A DNA stretch of 35,060 bases, taken from positions 1 to 35,060 of the forward strand of contig JAIOIU010000040.1 of assembly GCA_019912425.1 (NCBI GenBank), in the 5' to 3' direction. The position numbers were made by a program, and so were the translations under genes. Shown piece by piece: positions 6,188 to 35,060 of the stretch. Source of the stretch: Candidatus Methylomirabilis tolerans. Its GTDB lineage: Bacteria > Methylomirabilota > Methylomirabilia > Methylomirabilales > Methylomirabilaceae. The number at the start of each line of letters is the position of its first letter. The stretch's first letter is position 1. The notes beneath the pieces are model-generated. The model saw only the letters and a list, made by a program, of their open reading frames with translations. It was not told where the DNA came from and made no database searches.

Positions 6188-6460
6188 TCAGCCCTTTGTG
6201 GCGGACTGGGCGGTAAGCTTCCCGTCGGCCTCGTAACTGACCACTACCTTGGTGGCTGACTGAAGGTCAGCTAGGACCATTGCAGCATCCTCTACCACGC
6301 TGAAAGTCACCTCCCGCCCCTGAGCATCTATAATCAGGATCCTCGTGGAGGGGTGTGCCATGATCACCTCGCCGGTGATCAAGTGCATCGCAAAGGCCAT
6401 TCCGGCCAAGGAGAAAACTACCATAATGGCGACAAGGGCGACAGTCGCTTTTCTCCGCAT
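6188..6460 (-). CDS. Small exported protein, paralogue of the next gene
   Basis: About 90 residues with a clear signal peptide: MRRK, a hydrophobic core, and a likely cleavage site after AFA near residue 25. The mature part starts with MHLITGEVI and consists of short beta-strand-like segments; it has no cysteines or recognised catalytic motif. It resembles the neighbouring 107-residue protein in the same order (MRRKA, AFA, H-x-x-TGEVI, VTFxxxxxAxxL). The start at 6460 is chosen because the signal peptide and the alignment to the paralogue begin there. It is probably periplasmic or outer-surface; function unknown. Confidence 0.7.
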   Translation of the reverse strand: MRRKATVALVAIMVVFSLAGMAFAMHLITGEVIMAHPSTRILIIDAQGREVTFSVVEDAAMVLADLQSATKVVVSYEADGKLTAQSATKG

Positions 6461-6533
6461 GGAAGAATCGTCGCCTTCTATCATCGGATAATGTCAGGCT
6501 GACCTTTTGATTTGATAGTCAACCATCACAAAG

Positions 6534-6569
6534 AAAAAAGGCGACTCTGTCGGCGAGAGCCGCCCTTTT
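6534..6569 (-). terminator. Intrinsic terminator after the second small exported protein
   Basis: A stem of about 14 bp (6534-6548 with 6556-6569, two mismatches) lies 19 bases after the stop at 6588 and is T-rich in the minus direction. Sequence and spacing match the terminator at 6133-6168, so it was duplicated with the gene. Confidence 0.75.
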
Positions 6570-7201: not shown

Positions 7202-7468
7202 ATGGCGCGGAAGAGAACAGCAACGGAAGGTTCTGGCGGCAACTGCTGTCGAGTCGAGTCCCTCGTGAGTGTAGACGGGCGCGGTCAGATGGTGCTGCCG
7301 AAGGATATTCGCGAGAGGGCGGGGATCCGTCCGGGCGACAAACTTGCGCTTGCGACCTGGCAGGGGGAGGGAGGCGTCTGCTGCATCTTCCTCATGAAGA
7401 CAGAGATGCTGAGCGGGATGCTCCGCAGCGTGCTTGGGCCGGCCATGAAGGCACTGAGCGACGCCTGA
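7202..7468 (+). CDS. AbrB/SpoVT-type DNA-binding protein, HgcAB-associated (HgcC-like)
   Basis: An 88-residue protein. After a short N-terminus with a vicinal CC pair (GGNCCRVESL) comes a swapped-hairpin AbrB domain with VSVDGRGQMVLPKDIRERAGIRPGDKL, then VCCIFLMK with a second CC and a C-terminal helix. The paired CC motifs flanking an AbrB core resemble proteins annotated as HgcAB-associated protein (HgcC), found beside mercury-methylation genes and near some arsenic genes. Neither hgcA nor hgcB is in this window. AGGAGG eight bases upstream fixes the start. It is likely a transcriptional regulator sensing a thiophilic metal or metalloid through its cysteines; the DNA-binding fold is secure, the ligand is inference. 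Confidence 0.75.
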   Translation: MARKRTATEGSGGNCCRVESLVSVDGRGQMVLPKDIRERAGIRPGDKLALATWQGEGGVCCIFLMKTEMLSGMLRSVLGPAMKALSDA

Positions 7469-7607
7469 GGCGACCCCTGTGGCGTTGGATGGGGGGTGAT
7501 TATGTACACTACGCTAATTACGATACAGGGATATACATGCTTGCGCCTCGACCTGATTCTGCTCAACGAGGCACTCCAGGGAACGCCGGCAAACGATAAC
7601 GGTGGGA

Positions 7608-28938: not shown

Positions 28939-31296
28939 TTAGTGCCCGTCAGACGCTTCGCCGTCGATGGCGGCGCGGACCGAAGTGGCCAGGTCGGCCT
29001 GACAAAATGGTTTCCGGATATAATCGACTACCCCAGAGCTTTCCAGGCTGTGTTGAATTTCGTCCGGGGCATAACCGGTAGCAACCAGCACCTTAATGTC
29101 CGGGTTGAGAGCACGCAGGGCCGGGATCAGGTCTGTCGCACCCATCCGTGGCATAATGGCGTCAGTAAGAACCAGGGCGACATCGGCGTGAGCCCGGAAG
29201 GTTGCCAGCGCCTCGACGCCATCCTCAGCGCTCAGAACGGTGTATCCAAGGTCGCCCAGGAGGATCTCCCCCAACTCCCGGACCATCGGGTTGTCTTCTA
29301 CTAACAGGAGCGTCTCGGTTCCCCGCGGCATGGCCTCCGCGATCGAAGGGGCGGCTTTTACCGCAGCGGGAACCAAGGGAAGAAAGACGTGAAAGGCGCT
29401 CCCTTGGCCTTCGGCCGTCTCCACCTCGATCCAGCCCTCGTGCTGGTGAGCGATTCCGTAGACTGAGGCCAGACCCAAGCCTGTCCCATGGCCGGTTTCC
29501 TTAGTCGTAAAGAAGGGCTCAAAGAGGCGATCTCGGATAGCGGCCGGGATGCCGGTCCCGGTATCGGCCACAGTCAGGCAGGCGAAGGCGCCCACGCGGC
29601 GTTCTGGATGCCGACCCAGGCTCGCCTCGATCAGCGTGACCGGCGTCAGTCGAAGTGTCAGCGTACCTCCGTGGGGCATCGCGTCACGGGCGTTGGTGGC
29701 AAGGTTGAGGAGAATCTGTTGTACCTGAGCGCCATCGGCATTGACGACGAGAGGCTCTTGGGAGGGTTCTGACTTGATCGCGATCGTCTCGGGAAGCGTT
29801 CGCTGCAAGATGCTCGCGCTCTCTTGGAGCAGCGGGTTCAGGTCCAGCGGCTTCCGTTGCAGCGGAGCCTTCCGCGCAAAGCTCAACACCTGGCCTATAA
29901 GCTCTGCGGCTTGACGGCTCATCTCTGGTACTCGGCTAAGGTGACGGTGTCCCCTGCTATCCGGGGGCATCTCCCCCAAGGCCAGTTCTGTGAAGCCGAT
30001 AATCCCATTCAGAAGATTATTGAAGTCGTGCGCAATTCCCCCGGCCAGGAGGCCGATAGCCTCCAGCTTCTGCGCCTGGCGAAGTCGGTCTTCGAGGCGT
30101 TTGCGCTCGGTGATATCGTGTTTAATGGCGATGAAATAGGAAATGCCCCCACGTTCGTCCGGGACCGGGGTGATGGTTTGGTCCTCGGCATAGAGACTGC
30201 CGTCCTTGCGGCGATTGACGATCTCGCCTTGCCACACCCTCCCGGCAAGAATAGTCTCCCAAAGGTTCTGGTAGAAGGCCTGATCGTGGCTGCCCGACTT
30301 CAGGATGCGCGGGTTTCGGCCGATGGCCTCTTCGGCGCTGTAGCCGGTCAGTTGCGTATAGGCCGGATTGACCCAGAGGATGGTGCCTTCCCGGTCGGTG
30401 ATGACGATGCCGTTCGCAGCCGCTTCCAGCGCCGCCGCCTGAAGGCGGATTCGTCCCTCGGCCTGCTTGCGCCCCGTAGCATCCACCAAGATACCAACGA
30501 CGCCGTCAATGCCGCCCCCTTCATCACGCAATGGCGCCGTCCACAGGCTGATGTCGACCAGAGAGCCGTCTTTCTTCCGGCGAACAACCTCGATGCCGGC
30601 GAGCGTTTCCCCCTCCAACGCCAGGCCGAGAAGGGTGAGGTGCTCCTCTCGTCTGTTCGGGGGGACGATGGGCAGGGGGCGCCCAAGGACTTCTTCTTTC
30701 TGCCAGCCGAAAATCCGTTCCGCTGCTCGATTCCATGCCCTGACGTTCCCCTCGCGATCCAGGACGGTGATGCCCGTTGGCGAGGCATCAATCACCGTCA
30801 TAAGAAGATCGTGAGTTTTTTGTAGGGCCAGCTCCGCCCGCTTGCGCTCGGTGACATCGCGCAGGATCCCTTGAAAACCCACAACCCTGCCATTCTCCAG
30901 GATGGGAACCGGTTTGATCTCAACAAAGGCGCTCTCTCCGTTCGGGCGGACGATTTGAGTCTCTACGACCTCAGCAAGCTTCCCGGGCTCTAGATCGCGG
31001 GCAAACAACTCCTTCACCCGGTTCAACTCACCAGGGGTAATGAATTCCAAGAAGCTGCGGCCTGTGAGTTGTTCCGACCCTTTGACGCCATGAATCTTGG
31101 CCAGTGACCGATTTGCAAAGGTGATGACCCCCTGAGCGTTCATCACAAACAGCCCATCGCTCAACCCATTGACAAGGGTACGATATTTAGCCTCACTTTC
31201 CCGCAGGGCTTTCTCCGCCCATTGGCGTTCAGCGATTTCGGCTCGTAACGCTTGATTCAGTACCGTCAGTTCTTCGGTGGGCTCGTCGGATCGCAC
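28939..31296 (-). CDS. Soluble hybrid histidine kinase with three PAS domains and a receiver
   Basis: 785 residues. A short N-terminal coiled coil precedes PAS1 (about 35-155), PAS2 (165-280) and PAS3 (290-410), each ending in DVTERK/DATGRK/DITERK-like PAC motifs. HisKA has the phospho-acceptor in [13 protein letters not shown] (His423). HATPase_c has [19 protein letters not shown] and [11 protein letters not shown]-terminal receiver has the acceptor Asp712 ([12 protein letters not shown]) and KPF. No transmembrane segments, so it senses cytoplasmic signals such as redox state or small ligands. The frame stays open upstream to 31521 into pckG, but GTG 31296 with AGAAGGGGA six bases upstream is the likely start. 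No separate response regulator is adjacent. Confidence 0.92.
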
Positions 31297-31387: not shown

Positions 31388-33148
31388 TCACGGGGTACTG
31401 ACGCGGCTGAGCCGCTGACGGAGCATATTATGCTCCTGCCGAATCTGCGCAGGCAGGCGCGGGGCAAGACGGTCGAAAAACAGGCCTTGTTCCGCCTGCT
31501 CCGCAGCCCAGGCATCGGCATCGATCTTTAACAGCTCATCCGCGGCGCCAGCCGGCAGTCTCAGCCCATCCAGATCCAACGCATCAGATGTGGGAATGAA
31601 CCCGATGGGAGTCTCGACGGCCTTGCCCTGGCCGTGAACTCGCTCCAGAATCCACCTCAGAACACGAATGTTCTCGCCGAAGCCGGGCCAGAGAAAGCGG
31701 CCGCTCTGATCGGTCCGAAACCAGTTGACGTGAAAGATCGCGGGAGGGTGAGCGATCCGCTGGCCCATGTCGAGCCAGTGGCTGAAATAGTCGGCCATGT
31801 GATAGCCGCAGAATGGGACCATCGCCATCGGATCGCGTCGGGTAACCCCGACGGCGCCCGACTGGGCGGCTGTCGTCTCTGAGGCCATGCCGGCCCCCAC
31901 GAAGACGCCATGCTGCCAACCGTATGACTGATAGACGAGTGGCGCCACTCGGGCGCGCCGCCCCCCAAAGATGATCGCCGAGATCGGGACGCCCTCCGGA
32001 TCCTCCCAGCGGGGGGAGATCGATGGGCACTGCCTGGCGGGAAGTGTGAAGCGTGAGTTGGGATGGGCCGCCGCCCCCTCACCGGACGTCCAAGCGTTGC
32101 CGTGCCAATCAACCAAGCCATCGGGCGGTGTCGCGTCTTTTCCCTCCCACCACGGTTCTCCCTCCGGAGTAACGGCCACGTTGGTGAAGATCGTATTCCG
32201 ACCGACCGCAGCCATGATGTTGGGGTTCGTCTTGACGCTGGTGCCTGGCGCGACACCGAAGAATCCGGCCTCGGGGTTGATGGCCCGTAGCCGTCCATCG
32301 GGCCCGATGTGCATCCAGGCGATGTCATCGCCAACAGTCCACACCTTGTAGCCCGAGAAATCCGAAGGGGGGACAAGCATCGCCAGGTTGGTCTTGCCGC
32401 AGGCGCTCGGAAAGGCGGCCGCCATATAGGTGACCTGCCCTGATGGATCTTCCACCCCGATGATCAGGGTATGCTCGGCCAACCAGCCCTCCTCTCGACC
32501 GATCCAACTGGCAATACGAAGGGAGTGGCATTTCTTTCCCAACAGGGCGTTACCCCCATACCCCGACCCGATACTCCAGATGAGCCGCTCCTCGGGGAAG
32601 TGGAGGATAAAGCGACGGTCCGGACTCAGGTCTCCGAGCGAATGTAGGCCGCGGACAAAGCCGCCAGACTCGCCGAGTCGTTCAAGCGCGACCTTCCCCA
32701 TGCGGGTCATGATCCGCATGTTGACGACGACGTAGGGGCTGTCGGTGATTTCCACGCCGACCCTACTGTAAGGGGAGCCGGCCGGACCCATCAGATACGG
32801 GACGACAAACATCGTCCGGCCCTTCATGCTGCCCTGGAACAGCTTCCCGACCTGCTCGCGCGCCTCGTTGGGCTCCATCCAGTTGTTCGTAGGGCCGGCA
32901 TCCTCCTGTCGAGACGTACAGATGAAGGTCAGGTGTTCGGTCCGTGCAACGTCAGACGGATGGCTCCGATGCAGGTAACACCCAGGGTGGCGTTGCTGGT
33001 TCAGGCTCATCAGGGTCCCGTCCCGGAGCATCCCCTCAACCAGAACCTGATGCTCCTCCTCTGATCCGTCGCACCAATGGATGCGGTCCGGACGAGTCGC
33101 CCGGGCGACCTGATCTACCCACTGTTCTAGCGCTCTATGTTGGGGCAT
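31388..33148 (-). CDS. pckG: Phosphoenolpyruvate carboxykinase (GTP)
   Basis: A 586-residue GTP-type PEPCK. The P-loop reads FPSACGKTNLAML with the hyper-reactive Cys, and the metal-binding kinase-2 loop reads VGDDIAWM. GSGYGGNALLGKKC, EPWWEGKD and FSHWLDMGQ are also present, as is the family-typical C-terminal WFRTDQSGRFLWPGFGENIR. It interconverts oxaloacetate plus GTP with PEP plus CO2, the entry to gluconeogenesis. The ATG at 33148 has GGAG upstream. The histidine kinase gene follows after about 90 bases. Confidence 0.97.
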   Translation of the reverse strand: MPQHRALEQWVDQVARATRPDRIHWCDGSEEEHQVLVEGMLRDGTLMSLNQQRHPGCYLHRSHPSDVARTEHLTFICTSRQEDAGPTNNWMEPNEAREQVGKLFQGSMKGRTMFVVPYLMGPAGSPYSRVGVEITDSPYVVVNMRIMTRMGKVALERLGESGGFVRGLHSLGDLSPDRRFILHFPEERLIWSIGSGYGGNALLGKKCHSLRIASWIGREEGWLAEHTLIIGVEDPSGQVTYMAAAFPSACGKTNLAMLVPPSDFSGYKVWTVGDDIAWMHIGPDGRLRAINPEAGFFGVAPGTSVKTNPNIMAAVGRNTIFTNVAVTPEGEPWWEGKDATPPDGLVDWHGNAWTSGEGAAAHPNSRFTLPARQCPSISPRWEDPEGVPISAIIFGGRRARVAPLVYQSYGWQHGVFVGAGMASETTAAQSGAVGVTRRDPMAMVPFCGYHMADYFSHWLDMGQRIAHPPAIFHVNWFRTDQSGRFLWPGFGENIRVLRWILERVHGQGKAVETPIGFIPTSDALDLDGLRLPAGAADELLKIDADAWAAEQAEQGLFFDRLAPRLPAQIRQEHNMLRQRLSRVSTP

Positions 33149-33211
33149 CTTGTCTCCACAGCCGGGCGGTTACCGCCACCAGCCGAACCGCACAATGATA
33201 GCAATCAGGAG

Positions 33212-33250
33212 TCTTCAACGTTGAACGCTGAACCTTGAACATTGAACTAG
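33212..33250. repeat. Degenerate heptamer run (TTGAACN/CTGAACN)
   Basis: Consecutive units of the type GTTGAAC-GCTGAAC-CTTGAAC-ATTGAAC immediately upstream of the pckG region and beside the tRNA 3' end. Confidence 0.6.
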
Positions 33251-33253
33251 AAA

Positions 33254-33328
33254 TGGCTCCCCGGGTAGGGCTCGAACCTACAACCTAGCGGTTAACAGCC
33301 GCTCGCTCCACCATTGAGCTACCGGGGA
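33254..33328 (-). tRNA. tRNA-Asn (GTT)
   Basis: A 75-base cloverleaf on the minus strand. The acceptor TCCCCGG pairs with CCGGGGA, the D stem is GCTC/GAGC, and the anticodon stem AGCGG/CCGCT encloses CTGTTAA (anticodon GTT). The T arm is GTAGG-TTCGAGC-CCTAC. The discriminator base G and CCA are encoded. Confidence 0.96.
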
Positions 33329-33374
33329 TCAAAAGCAGCGCAAAAACAGCCTTTGGCCGTCAGCAATCAGATCG

Positions 33375-33407
33375 AGGCTGAAAAGTGAAAGCTGATAGCT
33401 GATGACC
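33375..33407. repeat. Degenerate heptamer run (GCTGATA type)
   Basis: Units such as GGCTGAAAA, GTGAAA, GCTGATA and GCTGATG lie between the tRNA and recR. The family is the same as the other heptamer runs in this window. Confidence 0.45.
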
Positions 33408-33469
33408 GTGTTGTAATTTAGCGCACTCGATCGGCGCGAGCAACGACTTTTTGGCGCGCGCCAACCACC

Positions 33470-34069
33470 TCATACGTCCCGCCGCCCCTCCAACGACTTG
33501 GAAAGCGTCACCTCGTCGGCGTACTCCAGGTCGCTGCCCATCGGCAGGCCGCGAGCGATTCGCGTCACCCGAACGGCCAACGGTCTCAGTAGGCGCGAGA
33601 GGTACATCGCCGTCGCCTCGCCCTCAACGTTAGGGTTGGTGGCCAGAATGACCTCTTTGACCTCCCCTCCCTCCAGGCGCTGCAGAAGGGCCTTGGCCGT
33701 GAGCTGGTCGGGACCACGTCCCTCCAGCGGCGACAGCGACCCCCCCAGCACGTGATACCGTCCCTTGAAGCTCGCCGTCTTCTCGATGGCCCAGAGATCG
33801 TTGGCCTCTTCCACCACGCACAGCGCCGATCCGTCTCGAGTCGGGTCGGCGCAGATAGGGCATTGCTCGCCCTCAGCGATGTTGTAGCAGACCGCACAGC
33901 TCTGAATTCGATCCTTCAGCTCGATAATGGCCTGAGCCAACGCCACCGCCTCCTCCTTGGTGGCCTTGAGGAGGTGGAAGGTCAGGCGTTGGGCGGTCTT
34001 GGGGCCAATGCCGGGAAGGCGGACCAACTCACCGATCAGTCTGACCAGGGGAGGGGCATAGCGGGCCAC
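33470..34069 (-). CDS. recR: Recombination protein RecR
   Basis: A 199-residue protein: an N-terminal helix-hairpin-helix ([18 protein letters not shown]), a Cys4 zinc finger ([20 protein letters not shown]), a TOPRIM domain ([30 protein letters not shown]) and the C-terminal [20 protein letters not shown]. It acts in RecFOR loading of RecA at gaps. It starts at GTG 34069, seven bases after the ybaB stop. The dnaX-ybaB-recR order is the classical conserved cluster. Confidence 0.97.
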
Positions 34070-34076
34070 GATGTTC

Positions 34077-34391
34077 CTACATCAGCCCCGGGGGCAGTCC
34101 CAGCCCGCCGGTCAACCGACCCATCTCCTGGCTCATCAGCTCGCGAGACCTTCGGAGCGCCTCATTCGCCGCCGCCATCACGAGGTCTTGCAGCATCTCC
34201 AGCTCGTCCGGACCGGCCACCTCCGGATCGATCTTTACCGCAACGACTTCACCCTGACCGTTACAGACGACCGTCACCATTCCGCCACCCGCCGTCCCTT
34301 CAACCCGCTTCGTCGCAGCCTCCGCCTGAATCTTTTCCATCTCGGCTTTCATGCGTTGCGCCTGTTTCATCATATTTCCGAAGTTCTTCAT
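34077..34391 (-). CDS. ybaB: YbaB/EbfC family nucleoid-associated protein
   Basis: A 104-residue YbaB/EbfC DNA-binding protein. The helical N-terminus is [20 protein letters not shown], then a beta hairpin with [20 protein letters not shown], and the C-terminal helix is [19 protein letters not shown]. It is likely a dimeric nucleoid-associated protein. The gene lies 18 bases after dnaX and seven before recR. Confidence 0.96.
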
Positions 34392-34409
34392 CTCATTCTC
34401 CCGTCGGCC

Positions 34410-34982
34410 CTATTCGGGCTGTTTCGCCCTGACTCGAACGATTTGGCCGTCAAAGAGCTCTACGGCACGCTGCACCAGGGGATGACGTCGCAGCGCCTCC
34501 TGACCTGCCTGTGCGTCCCACACAGACGGGTCGGACGACGCGATCGACTGCTCCGAGACAGCTCTTTGCTGGAGATCGCGCGGCCTGTGACGAGCCCCGC
34601 CGGATTGCGGCGGCTGACGCAGCTCACCCTGGCCTGTGACGAGCCCCGCCGAACCGCCAGTAGTAAGTCCGGTCAAACTACTCACTGCAGGTGGATTGCT
34701 TGAATTGCCGAATCGATACTCAACCGTCAGGGGCCGCCCAAAGGCCTCGGCTGCGGCCCCTGCCACGAGGCGCCGATTTTCAAGGTCGTCCAGCGTTGAA
34801 CGGGAAAAGGCCGTCCCGTTTTCGAATATCACCATGAGCCTGTCCCCCTCAAGCGTCACCCCCTGTGCCTCGGCAAGCAATGCAGCCAGAGACCGCTTCT
34901 TCCGTTCCAGTAGTAGCCGCGTAACGCGGGCCCAGCCTTCCTGCGGATCCTTGGCGACGTTGGCCGGAGGGGTGGGCCCGCG
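34410..34982 (-). CDS. dnaX: DNA polymerase III tau/gamma subunit, C-terminal part
   Basis: The open frame gives about 190 residues that fit the variable tau C-terminus: RVTRLLLERKKRSLAALLAEA, then GVTLEGDRLMVIFENG, and a DDLENRRLVAGAAAEAFGRP segment, ending TAG at 34410. Its position upstream of ybaB-recR supports dnaX. The N-terminal AAA+ and clamp-loader domains are absent: a TAA in the fold-back arm (34983-34985) closes the frame upstream. The missing part should lie beyond the true continuation of the contig. The truncation is therefore most likely an assembly effect rather than biology. Confidence 0.75.
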   Translation of the reverse strand, partial: RGPTPPANVAKDPQEGWARVTRLLLERKKRSLAALLAEAQGVTLEGDRLMVIFENGTAFSRSTLDDLENRRLVAGAAAEAFGRPLTVEYRFGNSSNPPAVSSLTGLTTGGSAGLVTGQGELRQPPQSGGARHRPRDLQQRAVSEQSIASSDPSVWDAQAGQEALRRHPLVQRAVELFDGQIVRVRAKQPE

Positions 34983-35060
34983 TTACGCGGCTACTACTGG
35001 AACGGAAGAAGCGGTCTCTGGCTGCATTGCTTGCCGAGGCACAGGGGGTGACGCTTGAGG
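34847..35060. repeat. Perfect 88-bp inverted repeat (fold-back) at the window end
   Basis: Bases 34847-34934 and 34973-35060 are exact reverse complements separated by 38 bases. The right arm re-encodes the dnaX segment ARVTRLLLERKKRSLAALLA on the opposite strand. It ends exactly at the last base of the window. Confidence 0.9.

What the first reader, a model, noticed from the sequence alone, without database searches (positions are those of the whole stretch)
34847..35060. Perfect 88-bp fold-back truncating dnaX at the window end
Exact inverted arms with a 38-base loop end at the last base and duplicate dnaX coding sequence on the opposite strand. A GGGCCC palindrome-like hexamer sits at the inner ends of both arms. 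dnaX is essential and its N-terminal two-thirds is lost here, so an assembly or amplification fold-back at a contig end is more likely than a real hairpin.
Basis: partly seen in the sequence, partly recalled or inferred. Interest (0 to 1): 0.55.

Follow-up and report, generated by a model that had tools for sequence, protein, structure and literature searches.

The report
Assembly fold-back at contig end
A perfect 88-base mirror-image copy at the end of this DNA piece is most likely a sequencing or assembly artefact in the middle of an ordinary replication gene (dnaX), whose other part lies on another piece of the same genome.

Summary
In detail: arms 34847-34934 and 34973-35060 are exact reverse complements (88/88) with 38 nt between them, ending at the contig's last base. 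The window is one whole contig (C40) of a 167-contig draft, near-identical to a named Candidatus Methylomirabilis record. The rest of dnaX (405 codons) runs off the right end of another contig, C144, so the gene is split, not lost. The near-identical assembly (Ru_enrich_MO2, 99.7% over 6,560 bases) breaks dnaX at the same two bases: one contig ends exactly at window base 34972, the last base before the outer arm, and lacks that arm; the other ends where C144 ends. Seven aligned genus relatives carry dnaX straight through, with 34 nt of 74-85% GC in the gap, a length that keeps the frame. If real, the outer arm would put a stop codon into dnaX at 34985-34983. Among 211 readable contig ends, one other has a comparable terminal fold-back. 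Verdict: artefact beside an unassembled GC-rich gap in the dnaX linker. Reads could not be examined.

The parts
34847..34934 (+). inner arm of the fold-back: genuine dnaX coding sequence (minus strand)
   Evidence: exact 88/88 complement of 34973-35060; identical in the near-identical assembly L012
34935..34972 (+). 38 nt between the exact arms: genuine dnaX sequence upstream of the inner arm; base 34972 is the last base shared with the near-identical assembly
   Evidence: reads PPANVAKDPQEGW in the dnaX frame, like PPADSAQGPQEGW of L016; L012 starts exactly at 34972
34973..35060 (-). outer arm: probably spurious inverted copy of 34847-34934 at the contig end
   Evidence: no counterpart in G031 beyond 34972; puts a stop codon in the dnaX frame at 34985-34983
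34928..34933 (.). GGGCCC next to the inner end of the inner arm (mirror at 34974-34979); candidate short homology for the turn
   Evidence: its role is inferred
34410..34972 (-). dnaX (DNA polymerase III gamma/tau) C-terminal part, 5' end cut by the contig end
   Evidence: NCBIfam PRK14965 E 2.9e-06, 26.4 bits, far below its whole-protein cut-off of 670; Pfam DnaX_C 22.1 bits, below its gathering score 26.2; 59-76% identical to the C-terminal part of dnaX in genus relatives

Best explanation
The outer arm (34973-35060) is an artefact. The real chromosome carries one ordinary dnaX gene whose proline-rich linker holds a short, very GC-rich stretch (about 34 nt, judged from relatives) that the assembly did not cross, so C144 and C40 end on either side of it. 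At the C40 side the contig was extended by 88 bases along a fold-back: a strand or chimeric read that turned round beside base 34972 and copied its own complement. Shown: the exact fold-back, the split gene, the same break points in a second near-identical assembly that lacks the outer arm, an open dnaX frame across the site in relatives, the stop codon made by the outer arm. Inferred: that the turn happened during library preparation, amplification or assembly, and that short homology (GGGCCCA, or the imperfect inverted repeat 34936-34941/34966-34971) and the GC-rich gap favoured it.
For: The window is a whole contig of a 167-contig draft. dnaX N-terminal part, 405 codons in frame to the last base of C144; TIGR02397 433.9 bits, the only one of 8 matches over the cut-off. 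Near-identical named record NSJM01000014.1: 6,560 aligned bases, 99.7% identical; its contig end falls on window base 34972; its dnaX N-terminal contig ends at the same base as C144; sequence beyond 34972 and a separate outer arm are not found in it. In seven aligned genus relatives 34 occupied columns, GC 74-85%, lie between the C144 end and base 34972; 34 = 1 mod 3, as the frame demands. In a one-contig genus relative the two contig ends face each other, with 78 bases between the blastn-aligned stretches, which stop short of both contig ends. The outer arm stops dnaX at 34985-34983. Terminal inverted arms of 14 nt or more: 3 of 211 contig ends against 10 of 20,000 random internal cuts; of 25 nt or more: 2 of 211 against 4 of 20,000.
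Against: No reads were available, so coverage across 34973 is untested. The true bases after 34972 are not known, so short homology there is a guess; a strand ending at 34972 (34920-34972 folded alone) is not predicted to fold onto the inner arm, and 198 of 200 shuffles fold at least as well, so self-priming has no support from folding. Only 1 of 7 relatives has a formal G-quadruplex motif there, so the cause of the gap is open. The agreement of both break points in two assemblies could mean shared reads, or a real local structure. Linker length varies: three further genus relatives (L022-L024) were not in the alignment, so 34 nt is an estimate. Small contigs (under 3,000 bases) are not readable in G000 and may be missing from G031, so a fold-back or a dnaX piece on one would escape.
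Confidence: 0.95

Rival explanations
1. A real inverted duplication present in part of the population (template-switch inversion in vivo), taken into the contig by the assembler.
For: Perfect arms and a short loop are what a recent template switch would leave; the near-identical assembly ends exactly at the junction base, as it would at a branch in the assembly graph.
Against: It would break dnaX (stop at 34985-34983) and no second complete dnaX was found in the genome (with the limit that contigs under 3,000 bases read as N when fetched); the outer arm is not found in the second assembly.
Confidence: 0.03
2. A hairpin telomere: the end of a linear replicon read round its closed end.
For: A perfect inverted repeat ends a contig.
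Against: The exact arms stop 38 nt apart and 18 central nt stay unpaired even in the best fold, and these 38 nt read as dnaX coding sequence; the gene continues on C144; a genus relative of 2,752,854 bases is one contig with dnaX syntenic across the site.
Confidence: 0.005
3. A functional hairpin (terminator, attenuator or mobile-element end) inside dnaX.
For: Very stable fold, z -27.75.
Against: Only a tRNA reaches an Rfam gathering score in 33000-35060; no match in the plasmid collection at E 1e-5; the outer arm is not found in the near-identical assembly and the relatives' frames run through.
Confidence: 0.01

Closest known systems
Fold-back / inverted chimeric artefacts of sequencing libraries (PMC10908179, passages seen, parts of the abstract among them; PMC12870357, passages seen, parts of the abstract among them)
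   Same: one part of the sequence is the original strand, the other the inverted complement of the same place; in PMC10908179 short inverted repeats or palindromes lie at the turn
   Different: those passages concern reads of human samples; here the fold-back is fixed in the end of a draft contig, and the sequencing platform and library are unknown
Palindromic (inverted chimeric) reads of multiple displacement amplification (PMC13265396, start of abstract seen in the search listing)
   Same: inverted copy of the adjacent sequence
   Different: nothing here shows that this DNA was so amplified; one other comparable contig end among 211

Membership tests
fold-back assembly/library artefact | exact inverted copy of adjacent sequence, without divergence | tested here: met
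   88 of 88
fold-back assembly/library artefact | absent from another assembly of the same or a near-identical organism | tested here: met
   whether the two assemblies share reads is not known, and small contigs may be missing from that assembly
fold-back assembly/library artefact | true neighbouring sequence lies elsewhere | tested here: met
   dnaX N-terminal part at the C144 end; one continuous gene in relatives
fold-back assembly/library artefact | low or abnormal read support at the junction | not testable with these tools
   no reads held
hairpin telomere | perfect palindrome up to a tight turn | tested here: not met
   exact arms stop 38 nt apart; 18 central nt unpaired in the best fold
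dnaX (gamma/tau) | N-terminal AAA+ clamp-loader domain | tested here: met
   on C144, not in the window
dnaX (gamma/tau) | C-terminal tau domain (Pfam DnaX_C) | tested here: inconclusive
   window part scores 22.1 bits, gathering score 26.2; assigned by identity to genus relatives

The most novel reading that the evidence does not exclude
A real inverted duplication at a GC-rich hotspot in the dnaX linker that arises again and again in part of the Methylomirabilis population, which would explain why two assemblies stop at the same base.
Probability: 0.03. Interest if true: 0.35.

Novelty: not a real feature. Interest (0 to 1): 0.06.

Why it matters
Mainly as a caution: the last 88 bases of this contig should not be trusted, and dnaX should be counted as split between two contigs, not as truncated or lost. 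If real, it would be an inversion in a gene taken to be essential, for which there is no support here.

Tried and rejected
Hairpin telomere, plasmid or mobile-element end, and RNA element were considered and rejected. G-quadruplex as cause of the gap: 1 of 7 relatives (L016) has a formal motif in the gap plus or minus 60 nt (background 92 motifs in 1,302,150 bases), so this stays a guess. Self-priming of a strand ending at 34972: a short imperfect inverted repeat exists in the genuine sequence (34936-34941 with 34966-34971: five Watson-Crick pairs and one G-T), but the terminal base 34972 is mismatched and the stretch 34920-34972 folded alone does not take that shape; not supported. A direct overlap between C144 and C40: no shared 15-mer between C144's last 1,835 bases and the window from base 30,001. 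The near-identical isolate was sought in papers (terms NSJM01, NSJM00000000, Ru_enrich_MO2, Ru_enrich): 0 papers in that library. PMC6094997 was seen in passages only; its 2.75 Mb, one-contig M. oxyfera fits G006 by size, which is an inference.

Survey details: 130 of 167 contigs were looked at, the window's own included; 24 of them read N throughout (all under 3,000 bases) and were dropped; 211 of the 212 ends of the other 106 were tested (the right end of C126 was not fetched). An earlier count scored N stretches as fold-backs and is superseded. In the alignment the rows of C144 and C40 were fitted to the relatives' columns, which drops one extra codon that C40 has; three of the ten matched genus relatives (L022-L024) were not put in.

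Full report
Observation. The window ends in a perfect fold-back: 34847-34934 and 34973-35060 are exact complements over 88 nt with 38 nt between them (one search gives 98 nt at 97% when mismatches are allowed). It folds at -139.2 kcal/mol against a shuffle mean of -42.07 (z -27.75), far beyond chance. GGGCCC lies one base in from the inner end of each arm.

Setting. The window is the whole of contig C40 in a draft genome of 2,648,518 bases in 167 contigs. A named record, NSJM01000014.1 (MAG Candidatus Methylomirabilis sp. Ru_enrich_MO2), carries the region at 99.7% over 6,560 bases (20 mismatches, none in the first 857 bases). The right end of the window holds tRNA-Asn, recR, ybaB/EbfC and the C-terminal part of dnaX on the minus strand. 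That dnaX part scores weakly against family models (DnaX_C 22.1 bits, gathering score 26.2), but matches the C-terminal part of dnaX in genus relatives at 59-76% identity.

The missing part. The dnaX N-terminal domain is on contig C144: TIGR02397 at 433.9 bits, the only one of eight matches over the family cut-off. Its frame is open for 405 codons from an ATG to the last base of C144, behind a signal-recognition-particle RNA gene. So the gene is split between the ends of C144 and C40. No second complete dnaX was found; contigs under 3,000 bases read as N when fetched and may hide sequence.

The second assembly. The named near-identical genome (G031) breaks at the same two places. Its contig corresponding to C40 ends at window base 34972, the last base before the outer arm, and has no outer arm; its contig corresponding to C144 ends at the same base as C144. 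At this end C40 equals that contig's end plus 88 bases of inverted copy. Whether the assemblies share reads is not known, and very small contigs may be missing from G031.

Relatives. Of 31 genomes searched (own included), 27 matched the dnaX C-terminal part. Of the 13 other genomes of the genus, 10 matched and 3 did not; in 9 of these 10 the open frame through the match is 592-628 codons, in the tenth 328 on a 4,061-base contig, and no match had a stop inside. In an alignment of seven of the ten (L015-L021; L022-L024 were not put in and have other linker sequences and lengths) 34 columns separate the end of C144 from base 34972, all occupied in the seven relatives, at 74-85% GC. C144 ends on a codon boundary and base 34972 is the second position of a codon, so the missing length must be 1 modulo 3, which 34 is. 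In a one-contig genus relative of 2,752,854 bases the two contig ends face each other (blastn alignments end at 6450 and 6529 of L044).

Consequence if real. Read through the junction in the dnaX frame, the outer arm gives a stop codon at 34985-34983, so it cannot be part of a working dnaX frame.

Survey of contig ends. Of 211 readable ends from 106 contigs, 3 have an inverted arm of 14 nt or more reaching within 5 bases of the end: C40 right (88 nt, loop 38), C54 right (29 nt, loop 28) and C120 left (15 nt, loop 4); of 20,000 random internal cut points 10 do, and 4 have arms of 25 nt or more. C120 left looks like an ordinary short hairpin; C54 right resembles C40 right and has a G- and C-rich loop; the last 500 bases of C54 have no match in G031. 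Such arms are rare in this genome and more frequent at contig ends, on small numbers.

Mechanism. The best reading is a fold-back artefact beside an unassembled GC-rich gap. That library molecules can fold back at short inverted repeats is described in PMC10908179, and recurrent fold-back reads in long-read data in PMC12870357 (passages seen). Which step produced it here is inference. The genuine sequence holds a short imperfect inverted repeat beside the turn, but a strand ending at 34972 is not predicted to fold that way (198 of 200 shuffles fold at least as well), and the true bases after 34972 are unknown.

Verdict. Not a biological feature; low interest.

Noticed in passing
L098 (G000:C54) 7384-7469: A second terminal fold-back in the same genome: 29-nt exact arms, 28-nt G+C-rich loop, ending at the contig's last base; the last 500 bases of this contig have no match in the near-identical assembly G031. 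C54 also has longer-spaced inverted repeats inside (6226-6550).
   Followed up: partly
L184 (G000:C120) 1-34: The contig starts with a short hairpin (15-nt arms, 4-nt loop); it looks like a natural hairpin at which the assembly broke.
   Followed up: no
34582-34602 and 34631-34651: A 21-nt exact direct repeat inside dnaX, spaced 49 nt, so it is read in two frames; also in the near-identical record L012 but without an exact match in L015-L020.
   Followed up: partly
L011 258-522 (G000:C144:18757-19021): A bacterial large signal-recognition-particle RNA gene (RF01854, 201.5 bits) just upstream of the dnaX N-terminal part.
   Followed up: yes
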